DNA of 64,000 bases. It comes from a virus. Positions 3,042-37,743 of the stretch are shown piece by piece; positions within the stretch are counted from its first letter, which is position 1; the number at the start of each line of letters is the position of its first letter. Below the pieces are notes generated by a model. The model was not told the origin of the DNA. It saw nothing but the letters and a program-made list of their open reading frames with translations, and searched no databases. The DNA is taken from the IMG/VR virus record IMGVR_UViG_3300033156_000775, positions 1-64,000 of that record. The stretch is one strand, 5' to 3'. A program made the position numbers and the translations under genes.

Positions 3042-3248
3042 GCCTTAAAGAGGATAGAATGTGACAGATGTCACAGAAAGTTTAAAGAGTCCAAGCTATT
3101 TGACACTCTTGATGGAAGAAAGCTATGTGTAAGATGCTTTAGAAAAAGCAGTCCGGCTGTTAGTGTGTCGTTGAATAGGTCACTTAAAGTGTTTAATAGG
3201 AGGAATAAGAAATCAAATCTAAAGTCCAAGCATCTAAAGAGGAGCTAG
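3042..3248 (+). CDS. zinc-ribbon ORF in frame after portal stop
   Basis: The frame immediately after the portal TAA stays open for 68 codons and contains C-D-R-C-H followed 21 residues later by C-V-R-C-F, a four-cysteine zinc ribbon, then a basic tail rich in Lys, Arg and Ser. No ATG, GTG or TTG precedes the cysteines. It is either expressed by stop read-through as a portal extension, started at a non-standard codon, or a remnant. The intact Cys pairs argue against random sequence. Confidence 0.45.
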   Translation, partial: ALKRIECDRCHRKFKESKLFDTLDGRKLCVRCFRKSSPAVSVSLNRSLKVFNRRNKKSNLKSKHLKRS

Positions 3249-4372
3249 AAGACCTCTACTGGGATAGAGGGCTAAGTACTAAAGAGATAGGACAGAAATT
3301 TGGAGTGTCAGAGGCTGCTATTAGGAGGATAATGGACAAGTACGGGATTCCTAGACGTAGCAATTCAGATGCACATTTAAATTATTATAGGAGAACAACT
3401 AGGAATGATCCTGAACCCTCAATAGCTTCGTTAGAAGATCTATTAGCAAATCTACAAGCTGCTAGTCCAGTTGATTATGATCCTCCAAACAGAGAGAACC
3501 TGTCTATCCCAGTTCCTCTTAAATGTCTAGAGAAGAACAGGAAGCTGGATGCAACAGTCACATTAGTTTTGTCCGATCTACATCTTGGACACGAGAACCA
3601 TCTTCCTGACACCTATTGGAGCACCATCGGCAACCTGTGTAGGGTATTAAAGGCCATTACATGGATGTTCAACATCAAGAGAGCCTCTCTAGTGCTAAAT
3701 GGGGATATTGTGTCTGGAGTTGGAGTGTACCGTGGACAGGAATTCCAGAACATAGTTTCCAGGGGACACTGGCAGGTGTTTGTAGCTGAGGTTGTTATAG
3801 AGAGGACTATGAAGCGGATAGAAGAATATGTTGGTTTAGACAGGATCTACTTAGTCAAGGGGACACATGAATCTAGAGAAAGCAACTACATGCTCTACTT
3901 AAGGAAAATATTTCATCCATTGTCCGTTTATTCTAGTAAGTCTCTCATCCTCAATGTTGCTGATCCAATTGGAAAATATAACATATTGTTTACTCATGGT
4001 AGAGGTAGATCATCCTATTATCCAGTTTCCTATGAGCAGATTAGGAACATATGGAAGGCTGTTAGGCAGCTAGATGTTCCAGTAGAGAAGGTCTGTGTGG
4101 GCCACAGCCACTGGCTGACTCCTGAGCTAGACTTGGAAGGAGTATCTGTATGTGTTACTGGAGGATTCCAGAAATGGGAGTACACTGTCCCTCAGCGTCC
4201 ATGTGGCATGCTACTAATATTGTACTGTGACGGTGAGGCCAGTGTGGTTCCTGTTAGACCTGATCCCCAGATAGAAGCTAGAGAAAAGAATGAACCTGCA
4301 CTGGAATACAAGAACATGAGATACTATGCTGAGCTGCTTTCTGAACATATGAAGAATGAACCTGCTAATTAA
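3212..4372 (+). CDS. HTH plus calcineurin-like metallophosphoesterase (ATC start proposed)
   Basis: The catalytic part has the metallophosphoesterase motifs in order: S-D-L-H-L-G-H, N-G-D-I-V, G-T-H-E, T-H-G-R-G and G-H-S-H-W. Upstream of the first conventional start (GTG 3305) the same frame encodes a convincing helix-turn-helix: Y-W-D-R-G-L-S-T-K-E-I-G-Q-K-F-G-V-S. The GTG would cut this in half. The frame opens after a stop at 3206-3208, and the only initiator well placed after AGGAGG (3198-3203) is ATC at 3212, spacing 8. The product would be 386 residues. It may be a nuclease or phosphatase acting on DNA ends; the substrate is unknown. A second, shorter family member is at 62096. Confidence 0.75.
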   Translation: MKSKVQASKEELEDLYWDRGLSTKEIGQKFGVSEAAIRRIMDKYGIPRRSNSDAHLNYYRRTTRNDPEPSIASLEDLLANLQAASPVDYDPPNRENLSIPVPLKCLEKNRKLDATVTLVLSDLHLGHENHLPDTYWSTIGNLCRVLKAITWMFNIKRASLVLNGDIVSGVGVYRGQEFQNIVSRGHWQVFVAEVVIERTMKRIEEYVGLDRIYLVKGTHESRESNYMLYLRKIFHPLSVYSSKSLILNVADPIGKYNILFTHGRGRSSYYPVSYEQIRNIWKAVRQLDVPVEKVCVGHSHWLTPELDLEGVSVCVTGGFQKWEYTVPQRPCGMLLILYCDGEASVVPVRPDPQIEAREKNEPALEYKNMRYYAELLSEHMKNEPAN

Positions 4373-4384
4373 TGGTGAGTCGGT

Positions 4385-4678
4385 ATGAAGCGGAATAGTC
4401 TATTAGAGAAGCTACTGAATGAGGAATATGTCAGGAGCCTAAGTGAACGGAGATATAAAGAGCTTATGTTCTGTAAGGAGATACTATCAGAGGATGAACT
4501 TAGACAGTACAGCTCAATAAGTGTGGCGTACTCAGTAGCTAGGAACAAATTGATAGAGGAGATACTGCCAAAAATAGATGAGGAGCTAGCCTTCATAGCT
4601 AAACATAAGCATTTCAACACTATACATGCCTATGAATACTACAGGGACAAGATACAGAGCGTCCTAGATGAGATGTAG
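4385..4678 (+). CDS. small helical protein, unknown
   Basis: A 97-residue, highly charged, probably all-helical protein that follows the phosphoesterase gene by 12 bases. Its TAG stop is supplied by palindrome copy 4675-4688. No family recognised. Confidence 0.6.
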   Translation: MKRNSLLEKLLNEEYVRSLSERRYKELMFCKEILSEDELRQYSSISVAYSVARNKLIEEILPKIDEELAFIAKHKHFNTIHAYEYYRDKIQSVLDEM

Positions 4679-4688
4679 TCCGGACTAC
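4675..4688. repeat. palindrome core, exact copy 2
   Basis: Exact 14-bp core; the TAG at 4676-4678 is the stop codon of the upstream 97-residue ORF. Confidence 0.95.
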
Positions 4689-4735
4689 AAATGTTTTTCT
4701 AACTGACATTTGAGCTTCATTCCTTGGGAGCTCAA

Positions 4736-5950: not shown

Positions 5951-5960
5951 TCCGGACTAC
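5947..5960. repeat. palindrome core, exact copy 3
   Basis: Exact core, extended on the right to ...CTACACTTT. It supplies the TAG stop (5948-5950) of the GT4 gene. Confidence 0.95.
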
Positions 5961-5982
5961 ACTTTAAGGTGTGTAATTAGAT

Positions 5983-6039
5983 ATGGCTAGAAATAAGCTT
6001 CCAGACATCATGGCTGGCTGTATGGTTAAAAGTGTTTGA
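5983..6039 (+). other. 18-residue ORF overlapping the next gene in another frame
   Basis: ATG 5983 opens a frame reading M-A-R-N-K-L-P-D-I-M-A-G-C-M-V-K-S-V then TGA. It looks like the natural N-terminus of the following glycosyltransferase, which otherwise starts abruptly at GTG 6032. Joining the two would need a shift to the -1 frame near the A-run at 6028-6031. It may be a frameshift site, a sequence error or a leader peptide. Confidence 0.4.
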
Positions 6040-7825
6040 GTATGGCAAGAGCAGTGACAGGACTCTAGACCTAATCAAGGTCTTCAAGAAAGAGTCTGGC
6101 TTCAACGTTGAAGTGTATCAGGAGCCAAGTGACATCTACCTTAAAAAGTATGGTACACATGCATCTGGATGTGTACTTAGAGACTTCCAGTCCCTGATGA
6201 TGGACAATGAGGACTATTTTCTTATGCTGGACTCACATATAATGAGTGCTCCTAAGGATTATATTGAGAGGCTACTGTTCATAGACACTGATATTTCAGC
6301 TCCATATGTGTGGAATGAGGGACACACCCATTTCTATGACAGCTGGTGCTTCAGGATAGACAATAAAAGGTTCTCTCCATTCCATCCTCCAGACCAGCTA
6401 TACTGCTTCGAAGTTGACAGTGTAGGCACCACGTGGCTAGCTACTAGAGAGTCATTCCTAAACACATTTGTCTCCACCAACCCACTGAGCTTCTTCTACA
6501 ATGCAAGGACAATGGGATATGATGTTGTAGTAGACCCTAAGACACGTGTCGTACACTCAGACCTGACCAAATATGGGATAGTTAAGCTTCCTCCTCCACC
6601 TGAGCTTGGATACTATCCTAGTGAGGGGCTAGTTGACTCTTCCTTCCCAGTCACACCATACAAGAAGACAAGCAAGTCCATCTTCCATCGGACTTTGTAT
6701 GATAGCTTATGGTATTTCGTAGAGCTTAAAGCTCTTGAAGAGTGGTGTGTGAGCCCTATATACAAAAAAAGGACGTTGAGGACATGTAGAAGCTTTGTTG
6801 ACATGAACACGTTCTTCTGTACCAGAGATCCCTTCAAGATTAACGTAATGTACAAGGTTGAGATGTATCCTAGATATATAGAGGTAGAGCTGTCCAACAT
6901 TTGCCCCTTCAAGTGTATATGGTGTGAAAGGACATATCTTGAAGAAGAGCCTAGGCTGATGAGCTGGAAGGAATTCATGCTTATAATGAGCAACTTCCCT
7001 GACCTAGCTCAGATGTCGTTTACTGGTATAGGGGAGGCATGGACCAACCCTATTTTCCTAGATTGTATTAAGTATATAAAAGAGAGAGGAGTGTTCTTTG
7101 AGCAATATGACAACATGCAATTCATCACTAAAGAGAGAGCTGAAAAGCTAGTTAAGTATGGGGTTGAAAGAATAATTATCTCTCTAGATGCAGCTACTAA
7201 GAAGACTTATGAGAGAGTTAGAGTTGGACATAAATGGGATAAGATGCTGGATGGGCTTCGATATTTACAAAGAGCTAAGAAGAAGTTTAACGCTTACTAC
7301 CCAGTTATTGGGATTCACTTTGTTATTAACAAGGCTAATGTCCATGAAGCTCTAGACGTGTTAGATTTAGCTAAGCAGCTAGGAGTAGACTTTGTGTTCT
7401 ATAATAGGCTCCTACATAATTATCCAGAAATAAGTCACCTATACATGGAGATCCCTGAGTCCCTTAGAAGGGACATCATGGAGAGAGCTGGGGACCTGAG
7501 CATCAGGATCTCAATCAACCAGCCAGCTCAGGGAAAGCTACCTCCATTGAATGCATGTGTAGCACTGTTCCAGCCCTTCTTCCTAGTCAATGGAGATGTC
7601 ATCACTTGCTGTGCCCAACATGAGCATAATAAGCGTGACTGGGAAAAGGCAATGAAAATGGGCAACATATTTGAGGCTAGGGACTTCAGGAAGATATGGT
7701 ATGGCAAACGCTACAGACATCTGAGGAATCTCCTATACCAGAACAGACTTCCAGAGTACTGTATTGACTGTCCAGTATATGAGTGGAGAGGACACAAAGT
7801 ACACAAGGCAGTTGATTTAGAATGA
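6032..7825 (+). CDS. GT-A glycosyltransferase fused to radical-SAM/SPASM enzyme
   Basis: About the first 250 residues resemble a GT-A type transferase (Y-F-L-M-L-D-S-H-I, later a D-S-V-G-T-T-W segment). Residues from about 290 form a radical-SAM domain with C-P-F-K-C-I-W-C (CxxxCxxC), then G-I-G-E-A-W, and a C-terminal SPASM-like region (C-V-A-L-F-Q-P-F, I-T-C-C-A-Q, C-I-D-C-P). Together they suggest a glycan or peptide modification step that adds a sugar and does radical chemistry on it; this is inference. The start is uncertain (see the ORF at 5983). It overlaps the next gene by 4 bases (ATGA). Confidence 0.8.
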   Translation: MFEYGKSSDRTLDLIKVFKKESGFNVEVYQEPSDIYLKKYGTHASGCVLRDFQSLMMDNEDYFLMLDSHIMSAPKDYIERLLFIDTDISAPYVWNEGHTHFYDSWCFRIDNKRFSPFHPPDQLYCFEVDSVGTTWLATRESFLNTFVSTNPLSFFYNARTMGYDVVVDPKTRVVHSDLTKYGIVKLPPPPELGYYPSEGLVDSSFPVTPYKKTSKSIFHRTLYDSLWYFVELKALEEWCVSPIYKKRTLRTCRSFVDMNTFFCTRDPFKINVMYKVEMYPRYIEVELSNICPFKCIWCERTYLEEEPRLMSWKEFMLIMSNFPDLAQMSFTGIGEAWTNPIFLDCIKYIKERGVFFEQYDNMQFITKERAEKLVKYGVERIIISLDAATKKTYERVRVGHKWDKMLDGLRYLQRAKKKFNAYYPVIGIHFVINKANVHEALDVLDLAKQLGVDFVFYNRLLHNYPEISHLYMEIPESLRRDIMERAGDLSIRISINQPAQGKLPPLNACVALFQPFFLVNGDVITCCAQHEHNKRDWEKAMKMGNIFEARDFRKIWYGKRYRHLRNLLYQNRLPEYCIDCPVYEWRGHKVHKAVDLE

Positions 7826-12366: not shown

Positions 12367-13349
12367 AGATTCTTATCACTGGTGGAAGTGGATTCATAGG
12401 GTCAGCTCTAGCTAGAGTGTTGTCCGGACTAAATTATGAAGTCTATACCGTGGACATCCTAGATCAGGCAGTAAACAATGTTTTCCATATAAAGTCGGAC
12501 TTTACTAAAGTTCCATTAGAAATCCTCAGGAAGATAGATGTGGTCTATCATTTAGCAGCTAAGCTTCCTATCCATAAGCTGTCATTCAGGGAGTATTTCC
12601 TAGAGAACACTTCTAAGACATTTGACTTGTTATGGAGATGTAAGGAAGCTAACATCAACAGATTCATCTATGTCTCATCATCTGCTGTGTATGGCTATCC
12701 AGAATGCCCATTAACCGAGGCCTCACCTAGAAAGGCAAGGGAGCCCTATGGCCATTCTAAGCTCCTAGCTGAGAAGGCCTGTGAATATTTCAGGGACACT
12801 TATGGTATGAACATCTCTATTGTCAGACCTAGAACCGTTATTGGCCATGGAAGACTTGGAATTCTTTACTTGCTGTTCTACTGGTTCAGCAACAACAAGA
12901 ATGTATACCTCTTAGGAGATGGGTCCAATAAATATCAGCTCCTGTCATTAACTGACTTGATAGATGCATTGGTTAGACTAGGCAGTTATGGTTCTTACCA
13001 GGATTTCAATCTAGGAGCTGAACAATATAGCTCTCTTAGAAATGACCTTTTTGAATTGATCTATAATGTCAATTCTAGATCTAGGATTGTATCTTTACCT
13101 TCCACTATTGGAAGAATATTTTGTAGGACTCTAGATAAATTGATTCCTCTAGCTCCATGGCATTATGAGTTTATAGATAAAGATTTCTATTTCGATATAA
13201 GTAAAGCTAAGACAGAGCTAGGATGGAAACCTAAATTCTCCAACTTGGAAATGCTGCTAGAGGCTTATAGATCATATTTAACGGGAGAATATGGGCTGTC
13301 TCCACATAAGTCTCCAGTCACACTGAAGCTTCTAAGATTGTTGCCATAA
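12363..13349 (+). CDS. NAD-dependent epimerase/dehydratase (extended SDR)
   Basis: A 328-residue protein starting M-K-I-L-I-T-G-G-S-G-F-I-G, with H-L-A-A-K, S-S-S-A-V-Y-G and Y-G-H-S-K (Tyr-x3-Lys), a standard nucleotide-sugar epimerase/dehydratase layout. It is the last gene of the glycan operon. Two different SDRs next to a UbiA protein recall two-step 2'-epimerisation schemes, but the chemistry cannot be read from sequence. A two-mismatch palindrome copy lies at 12419-12432, inside the start of the gene. Confidence 0.85.
   Translation: MKILITGGSGFIGSALARVLSGLNYEVYTVDILDQAVNNVFHIKSDFTKVPLEILRKIDVVYHLAAKLPIHKLSFREYFLENTSKTFDLLWRCKEANINRFIYVSSSAVYGYPECPLTEASPRKAREPYGHSKLLAEKACEYFRDTYGMNISIVRPRTVIGHGRLGILYLLFYWFSNNKNVYLLGDGSNKYQLLSLTDLIDALVRLGSYGSYQDFNLGAEQYSSLRNDLFELIYNVNSRSRIVSLPSTIGRIFCRTLDKLIPLAPWHYEFIDKDFYFDISKAKTELGWKPKFSNLEMLLEAYRSYLTGEYGLSPHKSPVTLKLLRLLP
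12419..12432. repeat. palindrome core, two-mismatch copy in coding sequence
   Basis: GTTGTCCGGACTAA, encoding L-S-G-L-N in the epimerase. Confidence 0.6.
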
Positions 13350-13390
13350 ACTTTTAAGAGCATCAAAGCTAATTCTAAGTTTGATTGATA

Positions 13391-13519
13391 ATGCCAACTA
13401 AGGAGGAAGTGTGGATAGACCTGCTCTGGACAGTTATATATGACCTAGAGCGTAACATCATTGTCCTAAGGAGACTTCTCAAGGACATTTCTAAGGAGAA
13501 TGTTAAGAGGCATGGATAG
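13391..13519 (+). CDS. small ORF, unknown
   Basis: A 42-residue ORF (M-P-T-K-E-E-V-W-I-D) with amphipathic helix character, lying between the glycan operon and the convergent minus-strand block and ending just before a palindrome copy. No clear ribosome site, so expression is uncertain. Confidence 0.4.
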   Translation: MPTKEEVWIDLLWTVIYDLERNIIVLRRLLKDISKENVKRHG

Positions 13520-13522
13520 AGT

Positions 13523-13536
13523 GTAGTCCGGACTAC
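13523..13536. repeat. palindrome core, exact copy 5
   Basis: Exact core with full 20-bp symmetry (AGTGTAG...CTACACT), in the convergent gap between plus-strand and minus-strand genes. Confidence 0.95.
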
Positions 13537-13548
13537 ACTTCTAGAAAC

Positions 13549-13914
13549 TTACAGGAGCTTGTACCTTATTAGATAGGTTATCTTACAATTGGGACTAGTG
13601 CTAGTCCAAATTATTTCGATTGGATCATCTATTTCTCCATCAATCTTTATTTCTGGAAGAGACAGCATGGTGTGGACAGCACAATAAAGCTTAGCAATCA
13701 GCTTGCCAGATGAGAACTTAGCTTCTATCTCTCCAGCTGTGCTATCTGTAAACATGTGGGCAGCTCTTGTACTTACTTTAAACCCAGATGGTGGAGTGTA
13801 AATAGTAACTGGAGAGGAATCAGCACCAGTATCTATCTCTCCAGATATCCCATCCTCAGAAGCTAACATGTCTGATTGGTTTACAGGCTTCTTTCTCTCA
13901 CAGTAGACACTCAA
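13549..13914 (-). CDS. small beta-rich protein, possible capsid decoration
   Basis: A 121-residue protein predicted mostly beta, with no membrane segment. It is the last gene of the minus-strand morphogenesis block, directly downstream of a major capsid gene, the usual place for a decoration or head-stabilising protein. That role is from position only; no family recognised. Confidence 0.55.
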   Translation of the reverse strand: MSVYCERKKPVNQSDMLASEDGISGEIDTGADSSPVTIYTPPSGFKVSTRAAHMFTDSTAGEIEAKFSSGKLIAKLYCAVHTMLSLPEIKIDGEIDDPIEIIWTSTSPNCKITYLIRYKLL

Positions 13915-13965
13915 TCCCTATGCCTCTAATAAACATCTAGAAGAACATAAATGTCTTCATTAACC

Positions 13966-15033
13966 TCACAGATCTGATGCACTGAAGCTCCCAGCCTTAG
14001 CATTCACAACAATCCCTATGGCATTGTCATCGGTAACTGCAAACTCCCTCTCAGTCCATAGATGGTACCATGTCCTGTCTAGCTCTGGTCTATCCTCTTT
14101 CTTAGCTTCTAACTCTCTCTTTATGACTTGGTATCCAAACCTACTAGAGTCAACCATGATAGCTGCTCCTTCCGGTACAAGTGGTGACTCCACTAGCTTT
14201 AGATCAGCTATCATCCCTATTTCACCGTTTATCAGGTCCTTGTTGTATAGCTTTGCATTTACATAGAGTGTTGGGACATCTGGGTCGTATAGGAGAGTTG
14301 TGATTTCATTGCTGTTCACTATAACTATGTCTGGACTGACACTGGCAGCTAGCAATGTGGATCTCAGCTTGAGGAGGTCCCATGTGGTTAGCTTTGACTT
14401 TTCACTTGCATCCACCACCAGACCAGACGACTTACATCTGTCTGAGTACAGAAATGTGACTGTGGCAGCTGGAACTGAGCTTGACAATAGGACCTTTCCA
14501 TCATAGTAGTCAACTGCACTAACCGTTGCTCCAGGTGACACTGAAGAGATCGAAACTATTGGGGTTAGTGTGGTGCTTCCAAGTGTCCCTCCAGTCCAGC
14601 TGGTTATTGTACCGGACTTGAGGTCTAAGGCTATGGTTTGGGCACGTAGATCTAGCTCTTCAGCTAGCTTTCTACCAGCTTCAAACAGAAAGTCTTTAAG
14701 GACATCCCTTACAGGTGTCTCAAGGGCTTCATTGTCTATTTCAAGTCTGATACCGAACTTAGACACTTCCACAGTGGTACCAGTATACGAGATTGTGCTG
14801 GAGGTGGAGACTGAGCTCCCCTCAGAGACAGACTCAACTGTTATGCTCTCAGTGACATTTGGGAGTACAATGGTCCTTCCCTTAGTCTTTTCAAGGTCTC
14901 TGTTCTCTCTGAATATCTGGGATACTACAGCTTTCTTTCTAGACACGGAGTCAACAGTCTTGGATATTATTTTAGGAGTTATTGATTGAATATCAGCTGT
15001 GCCTAGGCCTGCAAGCTCAGCTAACTCCCTCAT
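13966..15033 (-). CDS. major capsid protein A (HK97-fold type)
   Basis: A 355-residue protein with an N-terminal helical arm (R-E-L-A-E-L-A-G-L-G-T-A-D), then the extended E-loop region (V-L-P-N-V-T-E-S-I-T-V) and a later D-L-R-A-Q-T-I segment. It aligns along its length with the protein at 36682-37743 (G-T-A-D, F-x-x-N-R-D-L, E-A-L-E, R-D-V-x-K-D, A-Q-T-I, S-S-R-x-G-Y-x-V-I-K-R), so the two are paralogous capsid proteins. It follows protease/scaffold genes, the classic order. Confidence 0.75.
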   Translation of the reverse strand: MRELAELAGLGTADIQSITPKIISKTVDSVSRKKAVVSQIFRENRDLEKTKGRTIVLPNVTESITVESVSEGSSVSTSSTISYTGTTVEVSKFGIRLEIDNEALETPVRDVLKDFLFEAGRKLAEELDLRAQTIALDLKSGTITSWTGGTLGSTTLTPIVSISSVSPGATVSAVDYYDGKVLLSSSVPAATVTFLYSDRCKSSGLVVDASEKSKLTTWDLLKLRSTLLAASVSPDIVIVNSNEITTLLYDPDVPTLYVNAKLYNKDLINGEIGMIADLKLVESPLVPEGAAIMVDSSRFGYQVIKRELEAKKEDRPELDRTWYHLWTEREFAVTDDNAIGIVVNAKAGSFSASDL

Positions 15034-15338: not shown

Positions 15339-15625
15339 TCCTTAACCACAGGGTTCCTTTTAGGAGGCACTTTACGGAAGTGGAGTATAGCTAGGTCAGC
15401 AGCCTTATCTAGCTTGGGCTCAGCCTTCTTCCTCTTCTCCTCTAGCTCCTTCTTAAGGGCATGGGCAGCTTCAGCCACTGACAGTGAATGGAACTCTACC
15501 TTAGGAGTAGAGCTGTCAGGGCCAGCACTGGACTTTTCTATCTTGTCCAGTCTCTTCTCTATACTGTCCAGCCTACTCAGTACCTCAAGCAGCCTAAGAG
15601 CTAGTTCTTCTAGTGTTTTACCCAA
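15335..15625 (-). CDS. coiled-coil scaffold-like protein 1
   Basis: A 96-residue paralogue of the neighbouring 100-residue protein: an N-terminal coiled coil, then a C-terminal K-A-A-D-L-A-I-L-H-F-R-K-V-P-P-K-R. It starts 2 bases after the protease-scaffold gene. Assembly scaffold is the likely role, from position and shape. Confidence 0.65.
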   Translation of the reverse strand: MGKTLEELALRLLEVLSRLDSIEKRLDKIEKSSAGPDSSTPKVEFHSLSVAEAAHALKKELEEKRKKAEPKLDKAADLAILHFRKVPPKRNPVVKE

Positions 15626-15627
15626 CT

Positions 15628-25645: not shown

Positions 25646-26119
25646 TCAGCTTTTCTTACGGATCTGTGTCCTTACAAATTGATCAAGCTTGTTTCTTCTG
25701 ATCCATGAAACAGCTTTATCATATGTCCACTTGTCAGCATCAAAGTCTACATATGCCACTCTAGCATGATGGATCTTACCAGGGACTGGGTATAGCCCTA
25801 TTCCTACTTTAACTCCCTCAGGGATGGTGAGCTCAGGTAAGTAGTCTTTTACCTTTTCATCTGGCTCTACCCTAGTGAACTTCCTAAGGTCATAGATATG
25901 AACAATAAAGTGGTCCCATCCCTTTTTCTGTTCTATGATAAAGTCCTTGTAGGGGACTCCAGCTCTAGGGTCTCCCTCCTTAGATAATTGATAATAGTAA
26001 GTGTAGTCCGGACTACACAATGGACTAGGCAGCTTGCTTTTCATGAAGCTCCACAGATGATTAGCACGTTTAGCGATATAGTATCCTTTAAGCTTCTTCC
26101 CTAATCTCAATGTCTCCAT
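25646..26119 (-). CDS. unknown protein linked to DNA-end repair genes
   Basis: A 157-residue basic soluble protein whose start overlaps the end of the phosphoesterase-like gene by 32 bases, so probably coupled to it. Palindrome copy 26003-26016 is translated C-S-P-D-Y-T near residue 35. No family recognised. Confidence 0.55.
   Translation of the reverse strand: METLRLGKKLKGYYIAKRANHLWSFMKSKLPSPLCSPDYTYYYQLSKEGDPRAGVPYKDFIIEQKKGWDHFIVHIYDLRKFTRVEPDEKVKDYLPELTIPEGVKVGIGLYPVPGKIHHARVAYVDFDADKWTYDKAVSWIRRNKLDQFVRTQIRKKS
26003..26016. repeat. palindrome core, exact copy 7
   Basis: Exact core with GTGTAG...CTACAC flanks; coding, read C-S-P-D-Y-T on the minus strand. Confidence 0.95.
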
Positions 26120-27596
26120 GATCTATAGTCTCTACAACAGACCATTTCCCATAAGCTTTCATTCTTGTCCCTTTAGGTTTAATCTTCATCCATTCTAAGT
26201 CCTCACACTTTTTCAATCTAGCTTTGACAGCTTTCTCTTCAGGATACTTCCATATCTCATCAGTGGTGAATAGGTTAAACTCCTGTAGAAAGTCCTGTCC
26301 AGAAACATGGAATCTAAGATCTAAGTGCTTCTTACCACTCTTCTCTGGGAACTCATGGATGTCTAGAACAAATTGCCCTGTAGCCAACTCTGATCCCTCT
26401 TCTTGGCTTAGCTTCTCAAATGTATAGACATCAGCTCCCTTCTCTTCCTGTCTTAGCTCCCATTCTCCCTTAAGCTTCTTTCCCTTAAACTTCAGAGTGA
26501 TGACTTCTTCTCCATCTACTCGTTTAGTCTCATAAGACGCTATTCCCTTATCTATGATTGTGTATTTCCCTACTAGCTCCTTGTTAGGGTTAAAGGGTGT
26601 ATCTGGCTTGGTAGATCCATCGTAGTCCAGCCATTTCCTAGGGACTCTGTCCATCTCATAAGCTCCCATAATCTCATCCTTTAATGGATAGCCATCTAGG
26701 AAGAACCTTCTAACTGACCCTTTACCCTTATCATCTAGCAACAAGTACCATCTGAACTGAGGCATCTGTCTACCAGTCTTTGCCCTTGCCCCGAACCATG
26801 ATGTCAGAGCTAGAGTAAACCTGATATTCTTGGAGAGCAGCTCATTCTTCTTCTTTACATATAACTTTTCCAGCTTGTCAATGTCCTCTTCATCGGACTT
26901 AGTGATCCACTGTAGCCATTTCCTATACTGATCGGTAAAGTTCTCTTTAGCCCAGTCCTTGGGAAATGGGAATGGACATTCCTTAGGTGGCTTCCAGTTC
27001 TCTTTCATGGCTCTATTTGATATTGTATATGGCTCCTGAGTCTTGGGTACCATGAACCTCCACATACGTTCATATTTACCTGGTATGGGCTTCTTAGTCT
27101 GAGGGTCTATCTTAGCTACTTTTATTCCCCTGATCACAATCCTAGTCCAATCCTTGAAATACTTCTTATCCTTAATAAAGTACTCATGGAAGTAAGGCTT
27201 CTGGGCTCCTGTCAGCAATTGTCCCTTAGTTAGGATCTTGAACTCTCCAGCTGCTTCTTCCCCAGCACCTATCTCACCAGGAGCTACCTTACCTTCTACC
27301 TTTAACCACACTAGAGGCTGACGAGCTTTGGTTTCTGCTCTGAAGCCTTTACCAATATTTTCTAGGAACTTCTGTGGAGTATGAGGATCATCCCTAGAAG
27401 CTCCCACTATGGACCACCCTTCGAGGTAGCCATTCACTTTAAACCTGAAGTCTACATGCTCAGAGTCTCCAATATAGTGAGCCTGCATTACAAATGGCTT
27501 AGGCTCAGTGACATACTCCATATACTTGGCTACTAATTCTAAAGCAATATGTTCAGGCACTGATAGCTCATCTAACATGTCTTTAGTAATCAACAA
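26088..27596 (-). CDS. LigD-type 3'-phosphoesterase-like protein, two repeats
   Basis: A 502-residue protein with two segments resembling the phosphoesterase domain of LigD (pattern F-V-x-x-x-H ... H-x-D-x-R-x-x-x-x-G). The first is near residues 35-65 (F-V-M-Q-A-H, H-V-D-F-R-F-K-V-N-G) and the second near 410-440 (F-V-L-D-I-H, H-L-D-L-R-F-H-V-S-G). That family trims ribonucleotides and phosphates from 3' ends before ligation. A DNA ligase lies in the next large gene of the same operon, supporting a break-repair role. The assignment rests on motif spacing only. Confidence 0.6.
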   Translation of the reverse strand: MLITKDMLDELSVPEHIALELVAKYMEYVTEPKPFVMQAHYIGDSEHVDFRFKVNGYLEGWSIVGASRDDPHTPQKFLENIGKGFRAETKARQPLVWLKVEGKVAPGEIGAGEEAAGEFKILTKGQLLTGAQKPYFHEYFIKDKKYFKDWTRIVIRGIKVAKIDPQTKKPIPGKYERMWRFMVPKTQEPYTISNRAMKENWKPPKECPFPFPKDWAKENFTDQYRKWLQWITKSDEEDIDKLEKLYVKKKNELLSKNIRFTLALTSWFGARAKTGRQMPQFRWYLLLDDKGKGSVRRFFLDGYPLKDEIMGAYEMDRVPRKWLDYDGSTKPDTPFNPNKELVGKYTIIDKGIASYETKRVDGEEVITLKFKGKKLKGEWELRQEEKGADVYTFEKLSQEEGSELATGQFVLDIHEFPEKSGKKHLDLRFHVSGQDFLQEFNLFTTDEIWKYPEEKAVKARLKKCEDLEWMKIKPKGTRMKAYGKWSVVETIDHGDIEIREEA

Positions 27597-27610
27597 GTCT
27601 CGAACCTCCT

Positions 27611-27931
27611 CTATGAGATGTAGTCCCTAGCCCTATCCACTTTAACTTTAGATAGCCTGCTACTCATCTCCTCACTCCATTTAATGTCGTACTCTAGGAA
27701 TCCAATTGTTACCTTCTTAAACTCATTGAAGATCTCTTCTAGCTCTTCTAGTTTAAAGTTCTCCATCAATGTAGGGTTGGTTAGCCATGCTTCCCATCCT
27801 GACACTGACCCTATAATTGCATTGGCACAGTGAACTATTGCAGAGATATAGTTTAGTCTGTCCTTGGGATCTAGATTGTTCAGGTAGTCTATCTCCCTGT
27901 TGATCTTGTCTATCCACTTCTTAATCTCCAT
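27611..27931 (-). CDS. small helical protein, unknown
   Basis: A 106-residue helical protein between the ligase gene (overlap 11 bases) and the phosphoesterase-like gene. Highly charged C-terminal half; no motif recognised. Confidence 0.55.
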   Translation of the reverse strand: MEIKKWIDKINREIDYLNNLDPKDRLNYISAIVHCANAIIGSVSGWEAWLTNPTLMENFKLEELEEIFNEFKKVTIGFLEYDIKWSEEMSSRLSKVKVDRARDYIS

Positions 27932-30900
27932 CTGTTTCTACCTCCTCTACAATGTAGTCCGGACTACACTTAGATAATGCTTCCCTCTTATATGACTTGT
28001 ATCCATAATAGTAGGACTTCAAGTACCTGCACCTACGTATGTTTGCTATTGGACATGCTACTGGGAATCGTAGATGCTCAATTTTAAGTAAGGTAAGCTC
28101 TTGATATCTAGGTCTGCCAAATATCTTAAGTAGTGGACAAATGGATTTGTCCTTCCAGAACTCACATAATGGAAGGTCTATAATTACTAGAGGTTCATAA
28201 GCTTCTAGCTCTTCCATAGATAGGGAATGAAGCTTCTCTCTGGATGGAGCAGGTCTAGTACCTAACCTAGCTATACGCTCCACAGTAGTCAAAGTGTCAG
28301 GCTCTTTCTTATCAGGCCTCTTCTCTTTGAAATAGGGGAACATCCAAGTGTACTTGATGCGTCCTCCCTTATCCTCATATTTCCTAATCCTGATTGGCAT
28401 GACTGTAATAATGTCTCCTCTCTTACACTTAACGTTAGTAGCATAGCTACGTCCAATTATAGCATAATGCTTTCCCTTGTATTCAACAATGTTAGATGGC
28501 TGAAACTCTTTAACTCTATTCTCTGGAACTAGATAGACTGAAACATACATGTAGTTCCCTAACGGCTCTCCTGTCTCTCTACGTTTCTTCTCTACCACAT
28601 TCCAGACCATGACATCTAGTTCCTTTAAGTTTTTCAACTTTGCCCATTCATCCACTCTGTTTTCTCCTTTAAACTTAACAGGATAAGTAGATGTAGCAGC
28701 TTTGGCTACTACTCCTTCTGATCCTGGAGCACTTCTCATCTTAGCTACTGCCCTCATAAATTCAGCAGGAGTCTTAGCAAATGTAGACCGGACTACGTCT
28801 AGGTACCTAGCATTTTTAGGTACAACTTTCTTTAGTAGCTTGAATCTTTCTGAGTATGGAAGATCCACTACTGGCTTACCATTATAGTACATGATGTCAT
28901 AGAACACATACACTATCTTATCCTCAAAGTCTGGTGATACTCTTCCTACTGTGATTTGGGCAGTATCTTCACGTTCCATCAAATCCATTTGACGTTTTAT
29001 CTTTGCTGACTTTATGACTTTATTAGGAGGTATCTTAAAAGCTAGCATCTCACCATCTAGGATACAACTGTCACAATTTAGCTTCTCCTTTATCTCCTTA
29101 ACTATATTGGGAAATTGACTAGCCCTATCTCTTTGCCTATCCTCAGTAATTATCTTTACTATGCCCTTGTCCTTGTCTACATGGAGCTGCATCCGTCTTC
29201 CATCGCATTTCTCCTGTACAAAGATCCCTTCATCCAGATAGTCCTTAGCCCATTCTAGATACATCTCCTTAGGATCAAAGAACTCATGTTTCCCAAACCC
29301 TGATTTGGGCTTGGCTCCTATCATAGGTTTACCTACTTTGATTTCTTGAGCTAGCTTCTCTAGTCTGTATGGTCCAAATCCCCTAATCATGAGCTCCTTA
29401 GGCAATGGGTTTAAGCTATATCCATGAATTGGAATGCTGTAACCAATTAATGGGCCATTAGGGTCCCATACGACATGAAGTCGTTTAGATAGCCACTTGG
29501 GATTTAAGCTTTTCAGAGCCACTACTAACCTAGGATCAGGCTTCTGTCTCAATAACAGATCGATGTCGTGATCTTTAGGTATCCTACCTTCATTGACTAA
29601 TCTACCAACTAAGTATGAAGCATAAGGTTCTCCCTTAGTTCTGATTGACCCTATACTCTGGAATGCTCTAATCACATCATCTAGAAGGATATATTCTCCT
29701 TCAGGCTCAGGTATATCTTCAGACATAAATAGCCCTTTAGGTGTTGGATACTCTGACACTTCTAATTCGATAGCTTTCTCCAGTATATTGTCTCCTCTAT
29801 GCTCTTCCCATAGTCCTCTCTTATAGAGCTCTATACCTACGAACACAGCTGCATTATGGATGTTTTCAGGTATTTTCTCAGGAGCGTCAGCTGAATGCTC
29901 AGCCATATTTACTAGCATCTTCCATAGCTCAATTAGATCTTCATCTGATAATCCTATGACATATTGAGGATCAATATCCTCTATCTTCATACCTTCTGGG
30001 AGCTTAAACTCTTCTTCTGTTGTTTCTTTCTCTCTAGCAGCAGGCCAGTGCCATTTAAAATCTTTGTATGGATTGTTCTTTAGAAGATCAGGATAGAAGC
30101 TAAGATGGCTTTCGACTATCATGGCAGCTGCATCATCAAGATACCAGCTGTTTCCAAGCTTGTAATGTGGAAGCTTTAGCCCCATAGCTGCTGTCCGTAG
30201 AGCAAACATTTCAAAGTAGTCCCTTCCAGTATCCACTGCTAACCATTTATATTTCCTAGCTAAGTCTTTAAGAGCTTCAGGTTGAAAGTCTCTTTTCTTC
30301 CATTCATAAATACAGTCTAAGACATTATCATCAAAAGTCGGACTCCCAAATACTCTTCCTAGAGTTTCTTCCTCAGTTATTCCTAGAAATTGAGATAGAT
30401 CTTTAAGCTTCTTAGCTTCGTCTTTCCAGGGTATTGGTTTACCATACTCCTTAATGGCTTTCCTGAAAGCTTCAGCTGCATATTTGGTGTATGTTTCAGG
30501 TCTATTGAACGTGAATCCTCTCTTAACCATTTCAGGTAACAGCTTATGAGCTATGAACCATACCATATCCTCTGGTTTCCAGTGTTCATACTTCTTTCCC
30601 TGTTTCATGTTGCTGTAGTGTCCAAGAGCTAGTCTAAAGTCATCTCCTAGCTGTCTGTCACTGGCCTTTTTAGGATCATATTTCTTGATGTCCATGAAAT
30701 TCCATGTTATAGCTCTATCACATGATGTCCGTTCTACATGTTCCAGTCCTCTAGAGAGCATTTCCATAGCTATTCTATAATGAGCCTTACAACACTCTGA
30801 AAGTAGCTCTCCACATGAATGGTAAACTAAATGGTAATATTCAAGATCCTGATTGCTCATTTCCTTCACAGATAGGAACTTTACATTCTTAGCATCAACG

Positions 30901-33236
30901 AAGACCTGAACTCCTCTGGGTATTTTAACTGGCTTAGGAGCTGGATACTTCTGGAACTTAAAAGCATAAGCGTATAATGGAAATGTCCATTTCCACTTCT
31001 TTACTTCCTCATCTGAAATTCTATGTTCATTTCTTAGCTTGTCAAATTCATCTTTGGATATTTCCCTAGGTTCATCTAGATATATGATTCCATAGCACAG
31101 CTTATCAGAAATAAGGTATAGTGGCTTACCTACATACTTAGTGAACTTCTTATGTTTAACAATTAAAGTCTTCTTTCCTTTCCATATTAATTCTCCATGA
31201 GGCATAGTGAGATAAAGAGCTGCCTCTGGAGGTTTAGCTATTGCCTTAGGAGTTATAGGCTCTACTTCCTCAGGCTTTACCTGTAGCAATTCTCTTTCAC
31301 TCTCAGTTATTAAGTCTTCAACATCATATAAATCTCCATCTCTAGCTACAACAATCTTAACATTGTATTTGTCCTCTAAGGTTTTCAGCTCATCTTGGAG
31401 CTTCTTATCTCCAAGCCTTATAGGCTCAGAATTTCCTGAAAACACCAGCTTGCCATTTCTTTCTACTAGTAGATTCGAGTTGTCTTCTACTTCCACGCAC
31501 CAGACCGTTCCGTGATAATCTTCAAGGTGTATTCCATTATTTTTTCTTGATACATAACCCTTCGCATGGCTGATGTTGTGGTCATAGTATATTTTTGAAT
31601 TTTCTTTAAAGTCAGTCCTTCTATTCACAGCATAACCTAACTTAAGTGTTACTTCCATTAAGTCTTCCGAAAGTTTTGGACAGATAGTCCCAAATGATCT
31701 ACTTTTTCGTTTTCTCCCATCTCCAAGGTAATATGCCTCAAAAAGAGCATGAAGATATTCTGAAGAGAGGTCTTTAATCCATTTTGGAATTTGCTTCCCT
31801 TCCTTTGAAGATCTACCGAATTGGGAAAGAAACGCAACTAAGCCTTGATCTGTAAGGAAAAAGTCACATCCTCGTTTAGAAATACTGTAGTTGATCTTAA
31901 GACGCTCTAATAAATCTTTAACTTCATTAAAAAATATCTTTTGAGTTATCCTGCTAAATTTTGGAACATCGTTTTTCCAATGAGAGGAACCCTCAGCAAG
32001 ATACCATCCAGCTAGCTTCAACGCATCGGCCAAAGGCATCGGAGGAGTATGCTTGCAATTAAAATGTGATTTTTTCCAGTAATCAGAAGTCCTAATCACT
32101 TTTTTCCCTGGTTGTTTCCCACTCCACTTCGCTCTAACTGGGAGATAGCAGTGAAATTTTTTGTAAAGATCTATAGCATAATAGTAATTCCAAGATTCTC
32201 GTTTTTTCTTTGTCACTGCATAGGGAACAGATCCTCGCTTCCATGCATATACTCTGCCTGGTGAGAGTCCAAGCTCTTTTGCTACTTTATAATCACTCAC
32301 TCCTTTCTTTAGCATAGCCATCGCCTTTTCATAGAGAGCTTCTATACTAGGATCTTGTTTAGTTGAAGATGGCAGCTTAGCTAGTACCCTATGATTGGGA
32401 GTTACAAGTAAATCAAGATATTCCGTTTTGAAATGAACCATCAACCCATCATAGCTATATCTAAATTTTCTTAAGATAGGCTTAGCTTCGAGTTCTTCAG
32501 TTTCTTTATTGAAAGACCAAACTAAGTCTCCTATTTTGACTTCGTTAAATGTCTTAATACCATTCGGAGTTACTAGTCGAGTATCTTCTGAGTAGCATCC
32601 TAGATGGGTGAATATGCAAACTCTAACATTAGCATCTCTACACCAAGCCAGCTGAGTACGGATATCAGCATGTCCAATAATAGTTCCTTCATCCTCCTTA
32701 GCTTTTCTTATCAGACCTCCCTTCTTATGTGTGCTTAAGTCTCCAATGTACACTTGGCATCCTTTCAAGTATTTCTCTCTATCATCCTTTCTAAAAGCAG
32801 CTACGTCACTAGCATAGCATATCTTTAGCTTCCCATCACTAATGATCAATGCTACATTTGGAGCTTTAACACTATGATAAATTGGGATTCCAATAGCTGA
32901 AAATGTCCCTAGCTTAAACTTCTTGTTTGGAGTAAATTCTTTCAAGCTTAAATGCTCATAGTCCTGAGATTTATAATACTCAGACTTTAGAGTAAGGCTG
33001 GACAAATATACTGGAACTTTGCTGTTCCTTACTTTCTTAAGTCCCCAGAGATGGTCCGGGTGACTGTGTGAGTTGATGACGTAGCTACATTTAGGGAACT
33101 TCTCAGGTTCATATAGATCTCCAAAGTCTATTAGGAGTCTCTCTCCGTTACTCTCAACTAGAAGAGACGATCTGTTCTTATGACTCTTAGAATAAGTTTC
33201 TACGTATCCTCGTGTCCCTAGGAAATTAAGCTTGAT
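27921..33236 (-). CDS. giant MBL-fold nuclease / nucleotidyltransferase / ATP-dependent DNA ligase with intein
   Basis: The frame extends 77 codons upstream of the first usual start (TTG 33005). It begins at ATC 33236-33234, 8 bases after AGGAGG, giving M-K-L-N-F-L-G-T-R-G and the metal site H-S-H-P-D-H (about residues 56-61) of metallo-beta-lactamase folds. An intein splits this domain after T-H-L-G. A long helical middle follows, then a polymerase-beta-like segment (H-D-I-D-L-L). The ligase domain has K1343 in E-K-C-D-G-R-R, then L-D-G-E-M, E-G-V-V-A-K and E-W-A-K-L-K, and a four-Cys C-terminus. MBL nuclease plus ligase recalls ligase-associated repair operons, here fused. Palindrome copies lie at 27954-27967 and 28793-28806. 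Confidence 0.8.
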   Translation of the reverse strand: MKLNFLGTRGYVETYSKSHKNRSSLLVESNGERLLIDFGDLYEPEKFPKCSYVINSHSHPDHLWGLKKVRNSKVPVYLSSLTLKSEYYKSQDYEHLSLKEFTPNKKFKLGTFSAIGIPIYHSVKAPNVALIISDGKLKICYASDVAAFRKDDREKYLKGCQVYIGDLSTHKKGGLIRKAKEDEGTIIGHADIRTQLAWCRDANVRVCIFTHLGCYSEDTRLVTPNGIKTFNEVKIGDLVWSFNKETEELEAKPILRKFRYSYDGLMVHFKTEYLDLLVTPNHRVLAKLPSSTKQDPSIEALYEKAMAMLKKGVSDYKVAKELGLSPGRVYAWKRGSVPYAVTKKKRESWNYYYAIDLYKKFHCYLPVRAKWSGKQPGKKVIRTSDYWKKSHFNCKHTPPMPLADALKLAGWYLAEGSSHWKNDVPKFSRITQKIFFNEVKDLLERLKINYSISKRGCDFFLTDQGLVAFLSQFGRSSKEGKQIPKWIKDLSSEYLHALFEAYYLGDGRKRKSRSFGTICPKLSEDLMEVTLKLGYAVNRRTDFKENSKIYYDHNISHAKGYVSRKNNGIHLEDYHGTVWCVEVEDNSNLLVERNGKLVFSGNSEPIRLGDKKLQDELKTLEDKYNVKIVVARDGDLYDVEDLITESERELLQVKPEEVEPITPKAIAKPPEAALYLTMPHGELIWKGKKTLIVKHKKFTKYVGKPLYLISDKLCYGIIYLDEPREISKDEFDKLRNEHRISDEEVKKWKWTFPLYAYAFKFQKYPAPKPVKIPRGVQVFVDAKNVKFLSVKEMSNQDLEYYHLVYHSCGELLSECCKAHYRIAMEMLSRGLEHVERTSCDRAITWNFMDIKKYDPKKASDRQLGDDFRLALGHYSNMKQGKKYEHWKPEDMVWFIAHKLLPEMVKRGFTFNRPETYTKYAAEAFRKAIKEYGKPIPWKDEAKKLKDLSQFLGITEEETLGRVFGSPTFDDNVLDCIYEWKKRDFQPEALKDLARKYKWLAVDTGRDYFEMFALRTAAMGLKLPHYKLGNSWYLDDAAAMIVESHLSFYPDLLKNNPYKDFKWHWPAAREKETTEEEFKLPEGMKIEDIDPQYVIGLSDEDLIELWKMLVNMAEHSADAPEKIPENIHNAAVFVGIELYKRGLWEEHRGDNILEKAIELEVSEYPTPKGLFMSEDIPEPEGEYILLDDVIRAFQSIGSIRTKGEPYASYLVGRLVNEGRIPKDHDIDLLLRQKPDPRLVVALKSLNPKWLSKRLHVVWDPNGPLIGYSIPIHGYSLNPLPKELMIRGFGPYRLEKLAQEIKVGKPMIGAKPKSGFGKHEFFDPKEMYLEWAKDYLDEGIFVQEKCDGRRMQLHVDKDKGIVKIITEDRQRDRASQFPNIVKEIKEKLNCDSCILDGEMLAFKIPPNKVIKSAKIKRQMDLMEREDTAQITVGRVSPDFEDKIVYVFYDIMYYNGKPVVDLPYSERFKLLKKVVPKNARYLDVVRSTFAKTPAEFMRAVAKMRSAPGSEGVVAKAATSTYPVKFKGENRVDEWAKLKNLKELDVMVWNVVEKKRRETGEPLGNYMYVSVYLVPENRVKEFQPSNIVEYKGKHYAIIGRSYATNVKCKRGDIITVMPIRIRKYEDKGGRIKYTWMFPYFKEKRPDKKEPDTLTTVERIARLGTRPAPSREKLHSLSMEELEAYEPLVIIDLPLCEFWKDKSICPLLKIFGRPRYQELTLLKIEHLRFPVACPIANIRRCRYLKSYYYGYKSYKREALSKCSPDYIVEEVETDGD
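27954..27967. repeat. palindrome core, exact copy 8
   Basis: Exact core with full flanks; encodes the K-C-S-P-D-Y near the C-terminus of the ligase protein. Confidence 0.95.
28793..28806. repeat. palindrome core, one-mismatch copy in coding sequence
   Basis: GTAGACCGGACTAC, encoding V-V-R-S-T in the ligase adenylation domain on the minus strand. Confidence 0.8.
31431..32597 (-). mobile_element. intein in MBL domain (389 residues, LAGLIDADG type)
   Basis: Starts C-Y-S-E-D-T-R-L-V (block A), ends V-F-S-G-N followed by extein Ser. Removing it joins F-T-H-L-G to S-E-P-I-R-L-G. It contains two LAGLIDADG-like helices (L-A-G-W-Y-L-A-E-G, Y-L-G-D-G) and an HTH-like segment. The usual penultimate His is Gly. 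Confidence 0.85.
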
Positions 33237-33258
33237 TGTTTATTCCTCCTAGCTATAT

Positions 33259-34526: not shown

Positions 34527-34892
34527 TTACTCCCCTGACGAAATCTTGACTAAAATGGCTTCCCGAATGTCCACTGAATCTTTATGGTAGTGGTTAATTA
34601 TCTCTCTAACCTCAGTCTCAACATTGTCAGGGAGCACTACTCTGTCGTTGACACTTATAGTTACTGTACCAGAAAACAGTGCTGAGTAGTCTCCCTCTAG
34701 TCCTACTCCAAACATATTCCATACTTCACGCATTCCCCTAGTAGGAGTGACCCATGCCTTAGCTCTTAAAGTGTCAGAGTACGAGTCACTGGTAACGATC
34801 CCTTCAGAATCAGTGGACAATGATCTACGGTATATAGTGACATTCTGTCCAAACAGCTCTATCAGCTTCTCAGTTGGATATTGAAGACTCAT
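34527..34892 (-). CDS. head-closure/stopper protein
   Basis: A 121-residue beta-rich protein (V-T-I-Y-R-R-S, R-A-K-A-W-V-T-P, D-R-V-V-L-P-D) matching the small head-tail joining proteins of siphoviruses. It overlaps the connector gene by 4 bases. Confidence 0.65.
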   Translation of the reverse strand: MSLQYPTEKLIELFGQNVTIYRRSLSTDSEGIVTSDSYSDTLRAKAWVTPTRGMREVWNMFGVGLEGDYSALFSGTVTISVNDRVVLPDNVETEVREIINHYHKDSVDIREAILVKISSGE

Positions 34893-36571: not shown

Positions 36572-36589
36572 TTTTATGCACCTTCTAGT

Positions 36590-36603
36590 GTAGTCCGGAC
36601 TAC
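36590..36603. repeat. palindrome core, exact copy 10
   Basis: Exact core with AGTGTAG...CTACACC flanks, in the gap between MCP B and the connector gene. Confidence 0.95.
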
Positions 36604-36681
36604 ACCTTGTAAAGAATGAACTTAGCCTCCTACTTGTAGAGGAGACTAGTTCAAGACTACTTATCCTTTAAACTAGGAGCC

Positions 36682-37743
36682 CTAAGCAGCTGGATATGTA
36701 GAGTCACTTGAAGCTGCATTCACAACCAGTGCAACTGCAAGTGTGTCAGCAACACCAAAGTTTCTCTCAGCCCAGAAGTTGTACCAGACTGAGTCGTACT
36801 CAGGCTTGTCCTGCCTGTGTCCCTCAAGGTCTCTCTTGATGACATCGTATCCAAGTCTAGATGAGTCCACAACTATGGCTGCTCCCTCAGGAGCTCTGGT
36901 GCTAAGCAGGACCTTCATACCAAAGATCTTCCCTATCTCACCATTCAGGATGGCTTCCCTGTCCCCATAGGCTGAGGCATCTACAAACTTCAAGTTGGTG
37001 TCAAAGAGCAATGTAGCTAGGTCAACAGGGTTAAGAATAACTATATCTGGGTTTCTCTTTTGTCCAACTACCTTAGCTCTGGCCCTCATAAGATCCTTAG
37101 CTGACAGTGAACCAGCATTGGTAGCAGCAACCCACATGGTGTTCCCTTTCTGCATGTTGGGATACTCAGTCACTACAGTGGCAGCTGCAACTGAACCAGT
37201 TAAGGTAATAGTCCCTGTGTCATACTGAACATTTGCAATGGTAGCTCCACTAACAGATATGATTCTAAGGATTGGGACATTGGTAGCTGCATCAACCGAG
37301 TCATTTGAAATAGCTACAGTTTCTCTCTTCAGGTCCATCATTATGGTCTGAGCCTGGTCATCAACAGCCTCAGCATACTCCAATCCAGCTTCGTAGATGT
37401 GGTCTTTGATCACATCTCTCAAAGCCTGCTCTAGAGCTTCATTAGTGAATTCAAGCTTGATACCTACTTTCTCAACACTTACTGTGACAGCGTCATATGC
37501 AAATGAAGAAGCTGACACTGTGCTCCCTGGAGATACTCCCCAGGTAACAGATATGCCAGTACCCTTCTTTGGGAACTGTATCTGTCTAGGCTTACCAGCT
37601 CCTACAAGGTCTCTGTTAGGCTTGAATAGCTGGGCAAACACACAGGCTCCCCTAGCTACCTCTTCAATAGAGTCTGCAATAGCCTTGCCAGTAATAGCTG
37701 CAACATCAGCAGTTCCTACTCCTAGTTCTTCTAATGTTTTAAT
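36682..37743 (-). CDS. major capsid protein B (HK97-fold type)
   Basis: Paralogue of MCP A: shared G-T-A-D, N-R-D-L, N-E-A-L-E, R-D-V-I-K-D, A-Q-T-I, and P-E-G-A-A-I-(M/V)-V-D-S-S-R near the C-terminus. The frame is open to TTG 37767. Alignment with MCP A (M-R-E-L-A-E-L-A-G-L-G-T-A-D) places the start at ATT 37743 (K-T-L-E-E-L-G-V-G-T-A-D), 10 bases after AGGAG. A TATA box (37783-37793) fits a transcript starting near 37763. First gene of the long minus-strand operon. A virion could use both proteins, or one alternative form. Confidence 0.75.
   Translation of the reverse strand: MKTLEELGVGTADVAAITGKAIADSIEEVARGACVFAQLFKPNRDLVGAGKPRQIQFPKKGTGISVTWGVSPGSTVSASSFAYDAVTVSVEKVGIKLEFTNEALEQALRDVIKDHIYEAGLEYAEAVDDQAQTIMMDLKRETVAISNDSVDAATNVPILRIISVSGATIANVQYDTGTITLTGSVAAATVVTEYPNMQKGNTMWVAATNAGSLSAKDLMRARAKVVGQKRNPDIVILNPVDLATLLFDTNLKFVDASAYGDREAILNGEIGKIFGMKVLLSTRAPEGAAIVVDSSRLGYDVIKRDLEGHRQDKPEYDSVWYNFWAERNFGVADTLAVALVVNAASSDSTYPAA

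What the first reader, a model, noticed from the sequence alone, without database searches (positions are those of the whole stretch)
3198..37743. ATC and ATT appear to act as start codons
AGGAGG then 8 bases then ATC occurs at 3212 (metallophosphoesterase, where only this start keeps the HTH whole) and at 33236 (ligase, giving M-K-L-N-F-L-G-T-R-G plus the metal site). MCP B aligns with MCP A only if it begins at ATT 37743, behind AGGAG. In the first two no ATG, GTG or TTG precedes the conserved domain.
Basis: partly seen in the sequence, partly recalled or inferred. Interest (0 to 1): 0.75.

Follow-up and report, generated by a model that had tools for sequence, protein, structure and literature searches.

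The report
Viral genes starting at non-AUG codons
Several genes of this probably archaeal virus, and of its relatives, appear to begin at codons one letter away from AUG (AUC, AUU, AUA, CUG, ACG) behind a strong ribosome-binding site, and one of them, a DNA-ligase fusion gene, has kept its non-AUG start across four viruses, so start rules used by gene finders miss real gene beginnings here.

Summary
AGGAGG + 8 nt + ATC stands exactly at 3212 (metallophosphoesterase) and 33236 (metallo-beta-lactamase/ligase); in both an in-frame TAA lies two codons upstream and no ATG/GTG/TTG precedes conserved residues. Relatives carry it further. The ligase gene starts at the same alignment column with ATC (G003), ATT (G006) and ATT (G009), each behind GGAGG at 7-8 nt, and with ATG in sister G008; the four non-AUG genes form one supported clade. 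Other genes show the same: ATA, CTG, ATC and ACG behind GGAGG/GAGGTGA, several aligning with ATG/GTG/TTG of orthologues. Behind AGGAGG at 7-9 nt there are 6 such genes against 0.44 expected. No such case appeared in small bacterial or haloarchaeal phage controls. Best reading: ordinary Met-initiator initiation at near-cognate codons, enabled by a near-maximal Shine-Dalgarno; in the ligase gene probably kept to limit expression. The kind is known (infC/pcnB AUU; an inferred ATT in an Asgard tubulin); recurrence in about 2% of conserved genes and clade-wide retention are new here. No protein evidence; host unknown.

The parts
3198..3203 (+). Shine-Dalgarno AGGAGG of the metallophosphoesterase gene
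   Evidence: sequence; 8 nt before ATC
3212..3214 (+). ATC start codon, metallophosphoesterase
   Evidence: TAA two codons upstream; conserved HTH begins before the first GTG
3212..4372 (+). HTH + metallophosphoesterase gene, 386 codons; relatives start with TTG, ATG, ATG
33245..33250 (-). Shine-Dalgarno AGGAGG of the MBL-ligase gene
33234..33236 (-). ATC start codon of the MBL-ligase gene; ATC, ATT, ATT, ATG at this column in G003, G006, G009, G008
27921..33236 (-). metallo-beta-lactamase / intein / ATP-dependent ligase gene, 1771 codons
   Evidence: Pfam Lactamase_B_2, LAGLIDADG_3, DNA_ligase_A_M
37754..37758 (-). Shine-Dalgarno AGGAG of MCP B (10 nt before ATT, 1 nt before GTG)
37741..37743 (-). 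probable ATT start codon of MCP B
   Evidence: aligns with ATG of six orthologues
37750..37752 (-). alternative in-frame GTG start of MCP B, only 1 nt from AGGAG
   Evidence: sequence; canonical AGGAG spacings peak at 8-10
37765..37767 (-). alternative in-frame TTG of MCP B; lies upstream of the SD and near or before the TSS expected from the TATA-like element
   Evidence: sequence; TSS position inferred from archaeal consensus spacing
37785..37793 (-). TATA-like element TTTATATAA of MCP B
   Evidence: sequence; such motifs peak 40-49 nt before starts
36682..37743 (-). MCP B gene (353 codons from ATT)
   Evidence: PHROG and Pfam head proteins, alignment
13966..15033 (-). MCP A, paralogue used for comparison, ATG start

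Best explanation
The codons are translation starts read by the ordinary Met initiator tRNA despite one mismatch to AUG. A near-perfect Shine-Dalgarno (AGGAGG or GGAGG) at the modal spacing holds the small subunit over the codon and compensates for weak codon-anticodon pairing, so the protein begins with Met at AUC, AUU, AUA, CUG or ACG. Shown here: the position, the SD and spacing, the lack of canonical alternatives, alignment with canonical starts of orthologues, and clade-wide retention in the ligase gene. Inferred: that Met is inserted, that initiation is weaker than at AUG, and that in the ligase gene the weak start is kept because it limits or regulates synthesis.
For: Ligase: ATC, ATC, ATT, ATT at one column in four viruses (G003 and G006 are 72% and 60% identical to the window protein), each with GGAGG 7-8 nt upstream, no canonical codon possible in the window, G006 and G009, and ATG at that column in G008; the four non-AUG genes form one supported group (98/99), so the trait persisted. 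Genes found by scans not tied to the finding: ATA (G007 56008), CTG (G004 43069, G010 40540, G012 15007), ATC (G011 5082, G012 31251), ACG (G012 16306, G009 20774); most align with ATG/GTG/TTG of orthologues. Excess over internal windows P about 1e-6 to 7e-6. In the first four-virus scan the near-cognate codons behind AGGAGG sat at spacing 8 in all five genes, while canonical starts spread over 4-13. Every codon is one base from AUG, at any of the three positions, which fits Met-tRNAi mispairing and not an isoleucine initiator. The contigs are separate IMG/VR records from different metagenomes, so a base-call error is unlikely to recur.
Against: No proteomics or ribosome profiling; host and its initiation factors unknown. 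G003 ligase has an in-frame GTG two codons upstream (2 nt from AGGAGG), G004 43069 a GTG 13 codons downstream without SD, MCP B a GTG 3 codons upstream. A weak start on a capsid gene is odd. Control phages gave 0 of 191 tested genes, but the strict rule finds only about 1% here, so that contrast alone is not significant.
Confidence: 0.85

Rival explanations
1. The true starts are the downstream GTG (3305) and TTG (33005), giving shorter proteins.
For: They are the first canonical codons.
Against: They would remove residues conserved in relatives: the first HTH helix with E10, L12, LYW, and FLGTRG plus the HSHPDH metal motif. The AGGAGG sits at the ATC codons instead.
Confidence: 0.04
2. The codons are ATG in reality and were misread or mis-assembled; the record does contain two frame breaks (terminase near 49074, methyltransferase near 75518).
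For: Frame breaks in conserved genes. No near-identical contig could be found to confirm the bases.
Against: Three hits on start codons would imply a substitution rate that breaks dozens of ORFs, which is not seen; the ligase non-AUG start recurs in G003, G006 and G009 from other metagenomes.
Confidence: 0.05
3. MCP B starts at GTG 37752, giving M-N-A-I-K-T; only the two ATC cases are non-canonical in this genome. (Compatible with the best explanation for the other two genes.)
For: GTG is a standard start, in frame, three codons upstream; a capsid protein needs strong expression.
Against: GTG is 1 nt from AGGAG, far closer than the usual canonical spacing of 8-10, while ATT is at 10; ATT aligns with ATG in six orthologues; the three upstream codons are not conserved.
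Confidence: 0.3
4. The reading frames are entered from upstream genes by frameshifting, stop-codon readthrough or reinitiation rather than by a new start.
For: The virus group does use a likely frameshift in the tail-chaperone gene.
Against: In-frame TAA stops stand two codons before the ATC in both window genes, a full SD lies at start spacing, and the gene upstream of the ligase ends about 40 nt before.
Confidence: 0.03
5. A special initiator tRNA with an isoleucine-type anticodon reads AUH as a start.
For: AUC/AUU/AUA are all Ile codons.
Against: No such tRNA in the eight viruses searched (only one tRNA-Ser in the window's record); CTG and ACG starts are not explained.
Confidence: 0.02

Closest known systems
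AUU start codons of E. coli infC (IF3) and pcnB
   Same: near-cognate AUU start behind a Shine-Dalgarno; PMC9410913 calls them the only two E. coli genes with AUU
   Different: infC is bacterial and encodes the factor that rejects AUU, giving autoregulation; the viral genes encode no initiation factor (no SUI1 domain) and the group uses five different near-cognate codons
ATT start inferred for Asgard tubulin AtubA (Kariarchaeaceae), PMC13394414
   Same: ATT start in an archaeal gene inferred from homology and a ribosome-binding site at plausible distance
   Different: a single host gene; here many viral genes and several codons
Canonical archaeal SD-led initiation (aIF1, aIF1A, aIF2; PMC7531240, PMC6237735)
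   Same: GGAGG/GAGGTGA complementary to the archaeal 16S 3' end; TATA-like elements at the expected distance
   Different: the passages read name only AUG, GUG and UUG as archaeal starts; [quoted passage not shown]

Membership tests
near-cognate (non-AUG/GUG/UUG) start codons | codon differs from AUG by one base | tested here: met
   ATC, ATT, ATA, CTG, ACG in 14 candidate genes
near-cognate (non-AUG/GUG/UUG) start codons | no canonical start can give the conserved N-terminus | tested here: met
   both window ATC genes; inconclusive for MCP B, G003 ligase and G004 43069
near-cognate (non-AUG/GUG/UUG) start codons | orthologues start with a canonical codon at the same position | tested here: met
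   ligase G008 ATG; MCP B six ATG; G010 40540, G012 15007, G012 31251, G009 20774. Not shown for the metallophosphoesterase, whose N-termini align with gaps
near-cognate (non-AUG/GUG/UUG) start codons | protein begins with Met made at that codon | not testable with these tools
   needs N-terminal peptides or initiation profiling
infC-type autoregulated AUU start | gene product is an initiation factor that discriminates against its own start | tested here: not met
   products are an MBL-ligase, a phosphoesterase and a capsid protein; no SUI1 domain in eight viruses
infC-type autoregulated AUU start | non-AUG start retained across species | tested here: met
   MBL-ligase clade of four viruses, 98/99 support
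archaeal virus | archaeal promoters and replication genes | tested here: inconclusive
   TATA-like peak at -40..-49, PolB best covered by haloarchaeal tailed viruses at about 21-23% identity; host not identified

The most novel reading that the evidence does not exclude
The clade-conserved AUC/AUU start of the MBL-ligase gene is a translational control element: ligase synthesis is set by the stringency of host start-codon selection (aIF1/aIF2), and these probably archaeal viruses use near-cognate starts plus maximal Shine-Dalgarno sequences as a general means of tuning gene expression.
Probability: 0.3. Interest if true: 0.72.

Novelty: new variant of a known kind. Interest (0 to 1): 0.55.

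Why it matters
Standard gene finders accept only ATG, GTG and TTG and would truncate or lose these genes, including a ligase whose metal site lies in the lost part. AUU starts are documented in only two E. coli genes (PMC9410913) and CUG is reported for 0.024% of ORFs in 69 bacterial genomes (PMC9845219), so about 2% of conserved genes in one virus group is unusual. It offers natural test cases for how archaeal ribosomes choose starts and whether a strong Shine-Dalgarno rescues near-cognate codons, including one gene in which the weak start has been kept through the divergence of four viruses.

Tried and rejected
Near-identical contigs to confirm the bases: none found. Single-protein searches for the MBL domain found nothing in viral contigs; the three-sequence alignment found the informative relatives. 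One of those single queries was partly typed rather than taken from the sequence and its null result should be ignored. Host search: the one genome-collection scan gave only a weak bacterial hit, so the host stays unknown. A viral initiator tRNA or SUI1-type factor: none. Some flagged genes were discarded: SD codons (GAGG and the like) that merely aligned by chance, the NrdD case at record 83965-85773 (internal alignment), the tail-chaperone frame (frameshift), terminase and methyltransferase frame breaks, and shadow ORFs on the opposite strand.

Full report
What was checked. The window is bases 1-64000 of a 107,029-base virus record. Both ATC sites are exactly as described: AGGAGG, 8 bases, ATC at 3212 on + and at 33236 on -. 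In both, an in-frame TAA stands two codons before the ATC (TAA GAA ATC and TAA ACA ATC), and the first ATG/GTG/TTG comes at codon 32 or 78 of the stop-to-stop ORF. The pattern AGGAGG-N4..10-ATC occurs nine times in the record; only these two open a gene.

The proteins. The 3212 gene encodes an HTH plus metallophosphoesterase; the alignment with three relatives shows conserved residues (E10, L12, LYW) from codon 10 on, before the first GTG. Those relatives start with TTG, ATG and ATG. The 33236 gene encodes a metallo-beta-lactamase domain, an intein with a LAGLIDADG domain, and an ATP-dependent ligase; the metal motif HSHPDH lies at residues 57-62, so the TTG at 33005 would delete it.

Ligase orthologues. 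At the column of the ATC, G003 has ATC and G006 has ATT, both with AGGAGG 8 nt upstream; in G006 no canonical start exists between the stop and the conserved FLGTRG. A search with the three-sequence alignment added G009, with ATT 7 nt behind GGAGG and again no canonical codon, and G008, with ATG at that column. In G010-G012 and L054 the domain is fused in frame to an upstream domain, in L052 a D12-class methyltransferase, so no start is needed there. On a tree the four non-AUG genes group together with 98/99 support and G008 falls with the fused forms: the non-AUG start is a retained trait, although one substitution would restore AUG. G003 has an in-frame GTG two codons earlier, but only 2 nt from the SD.

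MCP B. ATT 37743 aligns with the start of MCP A and with ATG in six orthologues (L012, L013, L014, G004, G006, G009). The frame is open upstream through GTG 37752 and TTG 37767. AGGAG is 10 nt before ATT, a common spacing among canonical starts, but 1 nt before GTG; the tabulated canonical spacings start at 2 nt (one case) and peak at 8-10. A TATA-like TTTATATAA at 37793-37785 would place the transcript start near or after the TTG (inference from archaeal spacing; one search shows the motif peak at -40..-49). ATT is favoured at roughly two to one or better.

Is it general? I compared all stop-to-stop ORFs of G000, G004, G006, G007, G009-G012 and fragments. Genes with no canonical start before conserved residues and an SD-placed near-cognate codon are: G007 57003-56008 (ATA, AGGAGG-8), G004 42281-43069 (CTG, AGGAGG-8), G010 40133-40540 (CTG, AGGAGG-9, aligned with ATG in G011 and G012), G012 12959-15007 (CTG, GGAGG-9, aligned with ATG and GTG), G012 30763-31251 and G011 5597-5082 (ATC, GGAGG-9, aligned with ATG of G010), G012 15620-16306 (ACG in the same leader that reads ATG in G010 and G011), and G009 20133-20774 (ACG, AAGGAGGT-8, aligned with ATG/TTG of three orthologues). 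With the four ligases, the phosphoesterase and MCP B this makes 14 candidates in nine viruses, about 2% of conserved genes in the larger records.

Statistics and controls. In the first four-virus scan near-cognate codons behind AGGAGG at ORF 5' ends occurred at spacing 8 in five genes and nowhere else (apart from a second ATA in one of the same genes, at 14), while canonical starts behind AGGAGG spread over 4-13. Against internal windows of the same 595 genes the excess is 6 versus 0.44 (AGGAGG, spacing 7-9, P about 7e-6) and 10 versus 1.3 (GGAGG, P about 1e-6). These P values carry some freedom of choice: the spacing range and codon set were fixed after the first cases were seen, and orthologous genes are not independent. 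An orthologue-anchored test that looks at any codon found four convincing SD-backed cases in 450 genes, all near-cognate, and none in 113 genes of Bacillus/Aeribacillus phages or 78 genes of haloarchaeal tailed viruses; this contrast is suggestive only.

How it works. All codons differ from AUG by one base, at any of the three positions. That is what mispairing by the normal Met initiator predicts and not what an isoleucine initiator predicts; the viruses carry no such tRNA and no SUI1-type factor. The strong SD at a nearly fixed distance is the likely compensation. That the ligase start is kept non-AUG suggests low or regulated synthesis, as with infC, but without infC's feedback loop; this step is inference.

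Known context. AUU is described for two E. coli genes, infC and pcnB (PMC9410913); CUG for 0.024% of ORFs in 69 bacterial genomes (PMC9845219); an ATT start was inferred for an Asgard tubulin (PMC13394414). In the passages read, a review of archaeal initiation names AUG, GUG and UUG (PMC7531240), and aIF1 is said to favour discrimination against non-canonical starts (PMC6237735). My literature searches found no report for archaeal tailed viruses, within an open-access library only.

Limits. Everything here is sequence inference. The host is unknown: archaeal origin rests on TATA-like elements and on haloarchaeal tailed viruses being the best-covering DNA polymerase matches. No second assembly of this virus could be found to confirm the bases.

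Noticed in passing
window 641, 4674, 5946, 9488, 13522, 18966, 26002, 27953, 33258, 36589, 37812, 40813, 55002, 56843, 61837 and others: An exact 16-bp palindrome TGTAGTCCGGACTACA occurs 29 times in the 107-kb record and not once in G004, G006, G007 or G009; variants sit at the same promoter in L012-L014. It recalls phage stoperator or repressor sites.
   Followed up: partly
window 39261-39273: Likely -1 frameshift site GGGATTTTTTAGG joining the two tail-assembly-chaperone frames (38906-39313 and 39232-39495); the TTTTTT motif recurs in the relatives.
   Followed up: partly
window 48536-50840, break near 49074: Terminase large subunit is split by a frame change; the second part contains an intein-like insertion. 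Either an assembly indel or a real recoding site.
   Followed up: no
L009 12380-13039 (record about 75380-76039): A DNA methyltransferase gene is split by a frame change near L009:12520.
   Followed up: no
L024 about 7090-7629 (G004) and G009 38543-39067: A phosphoesterase that is one frame in the window (62096-62635) needs a +1 shift at CAC TTT C|GG in both G004 and G009, with the 0-frame stopping soon after: possible conserved +1 frameshift at UUU C.
   Followed up: partly
window 3042-3248: A 68-codon CxxC...CxxC ORF follows the TAA of the 1656-3041 gene in the same frame, has no ATG/GTG/TTG before its first cysteine, and overlaps the ATC start at 3212; no homologue in the relatives compared.
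   Followed up: no
window 26088-33236: MBL, ligase and a LigD-type 3'-phosphoesterase-like gene lie together, like a viral end-joining or repair set; in G010 the MBL is instead fused to a D12-class methyltransferase, and G011, G012 and L054 have a similar upstream fusion.
   Followed up: partly
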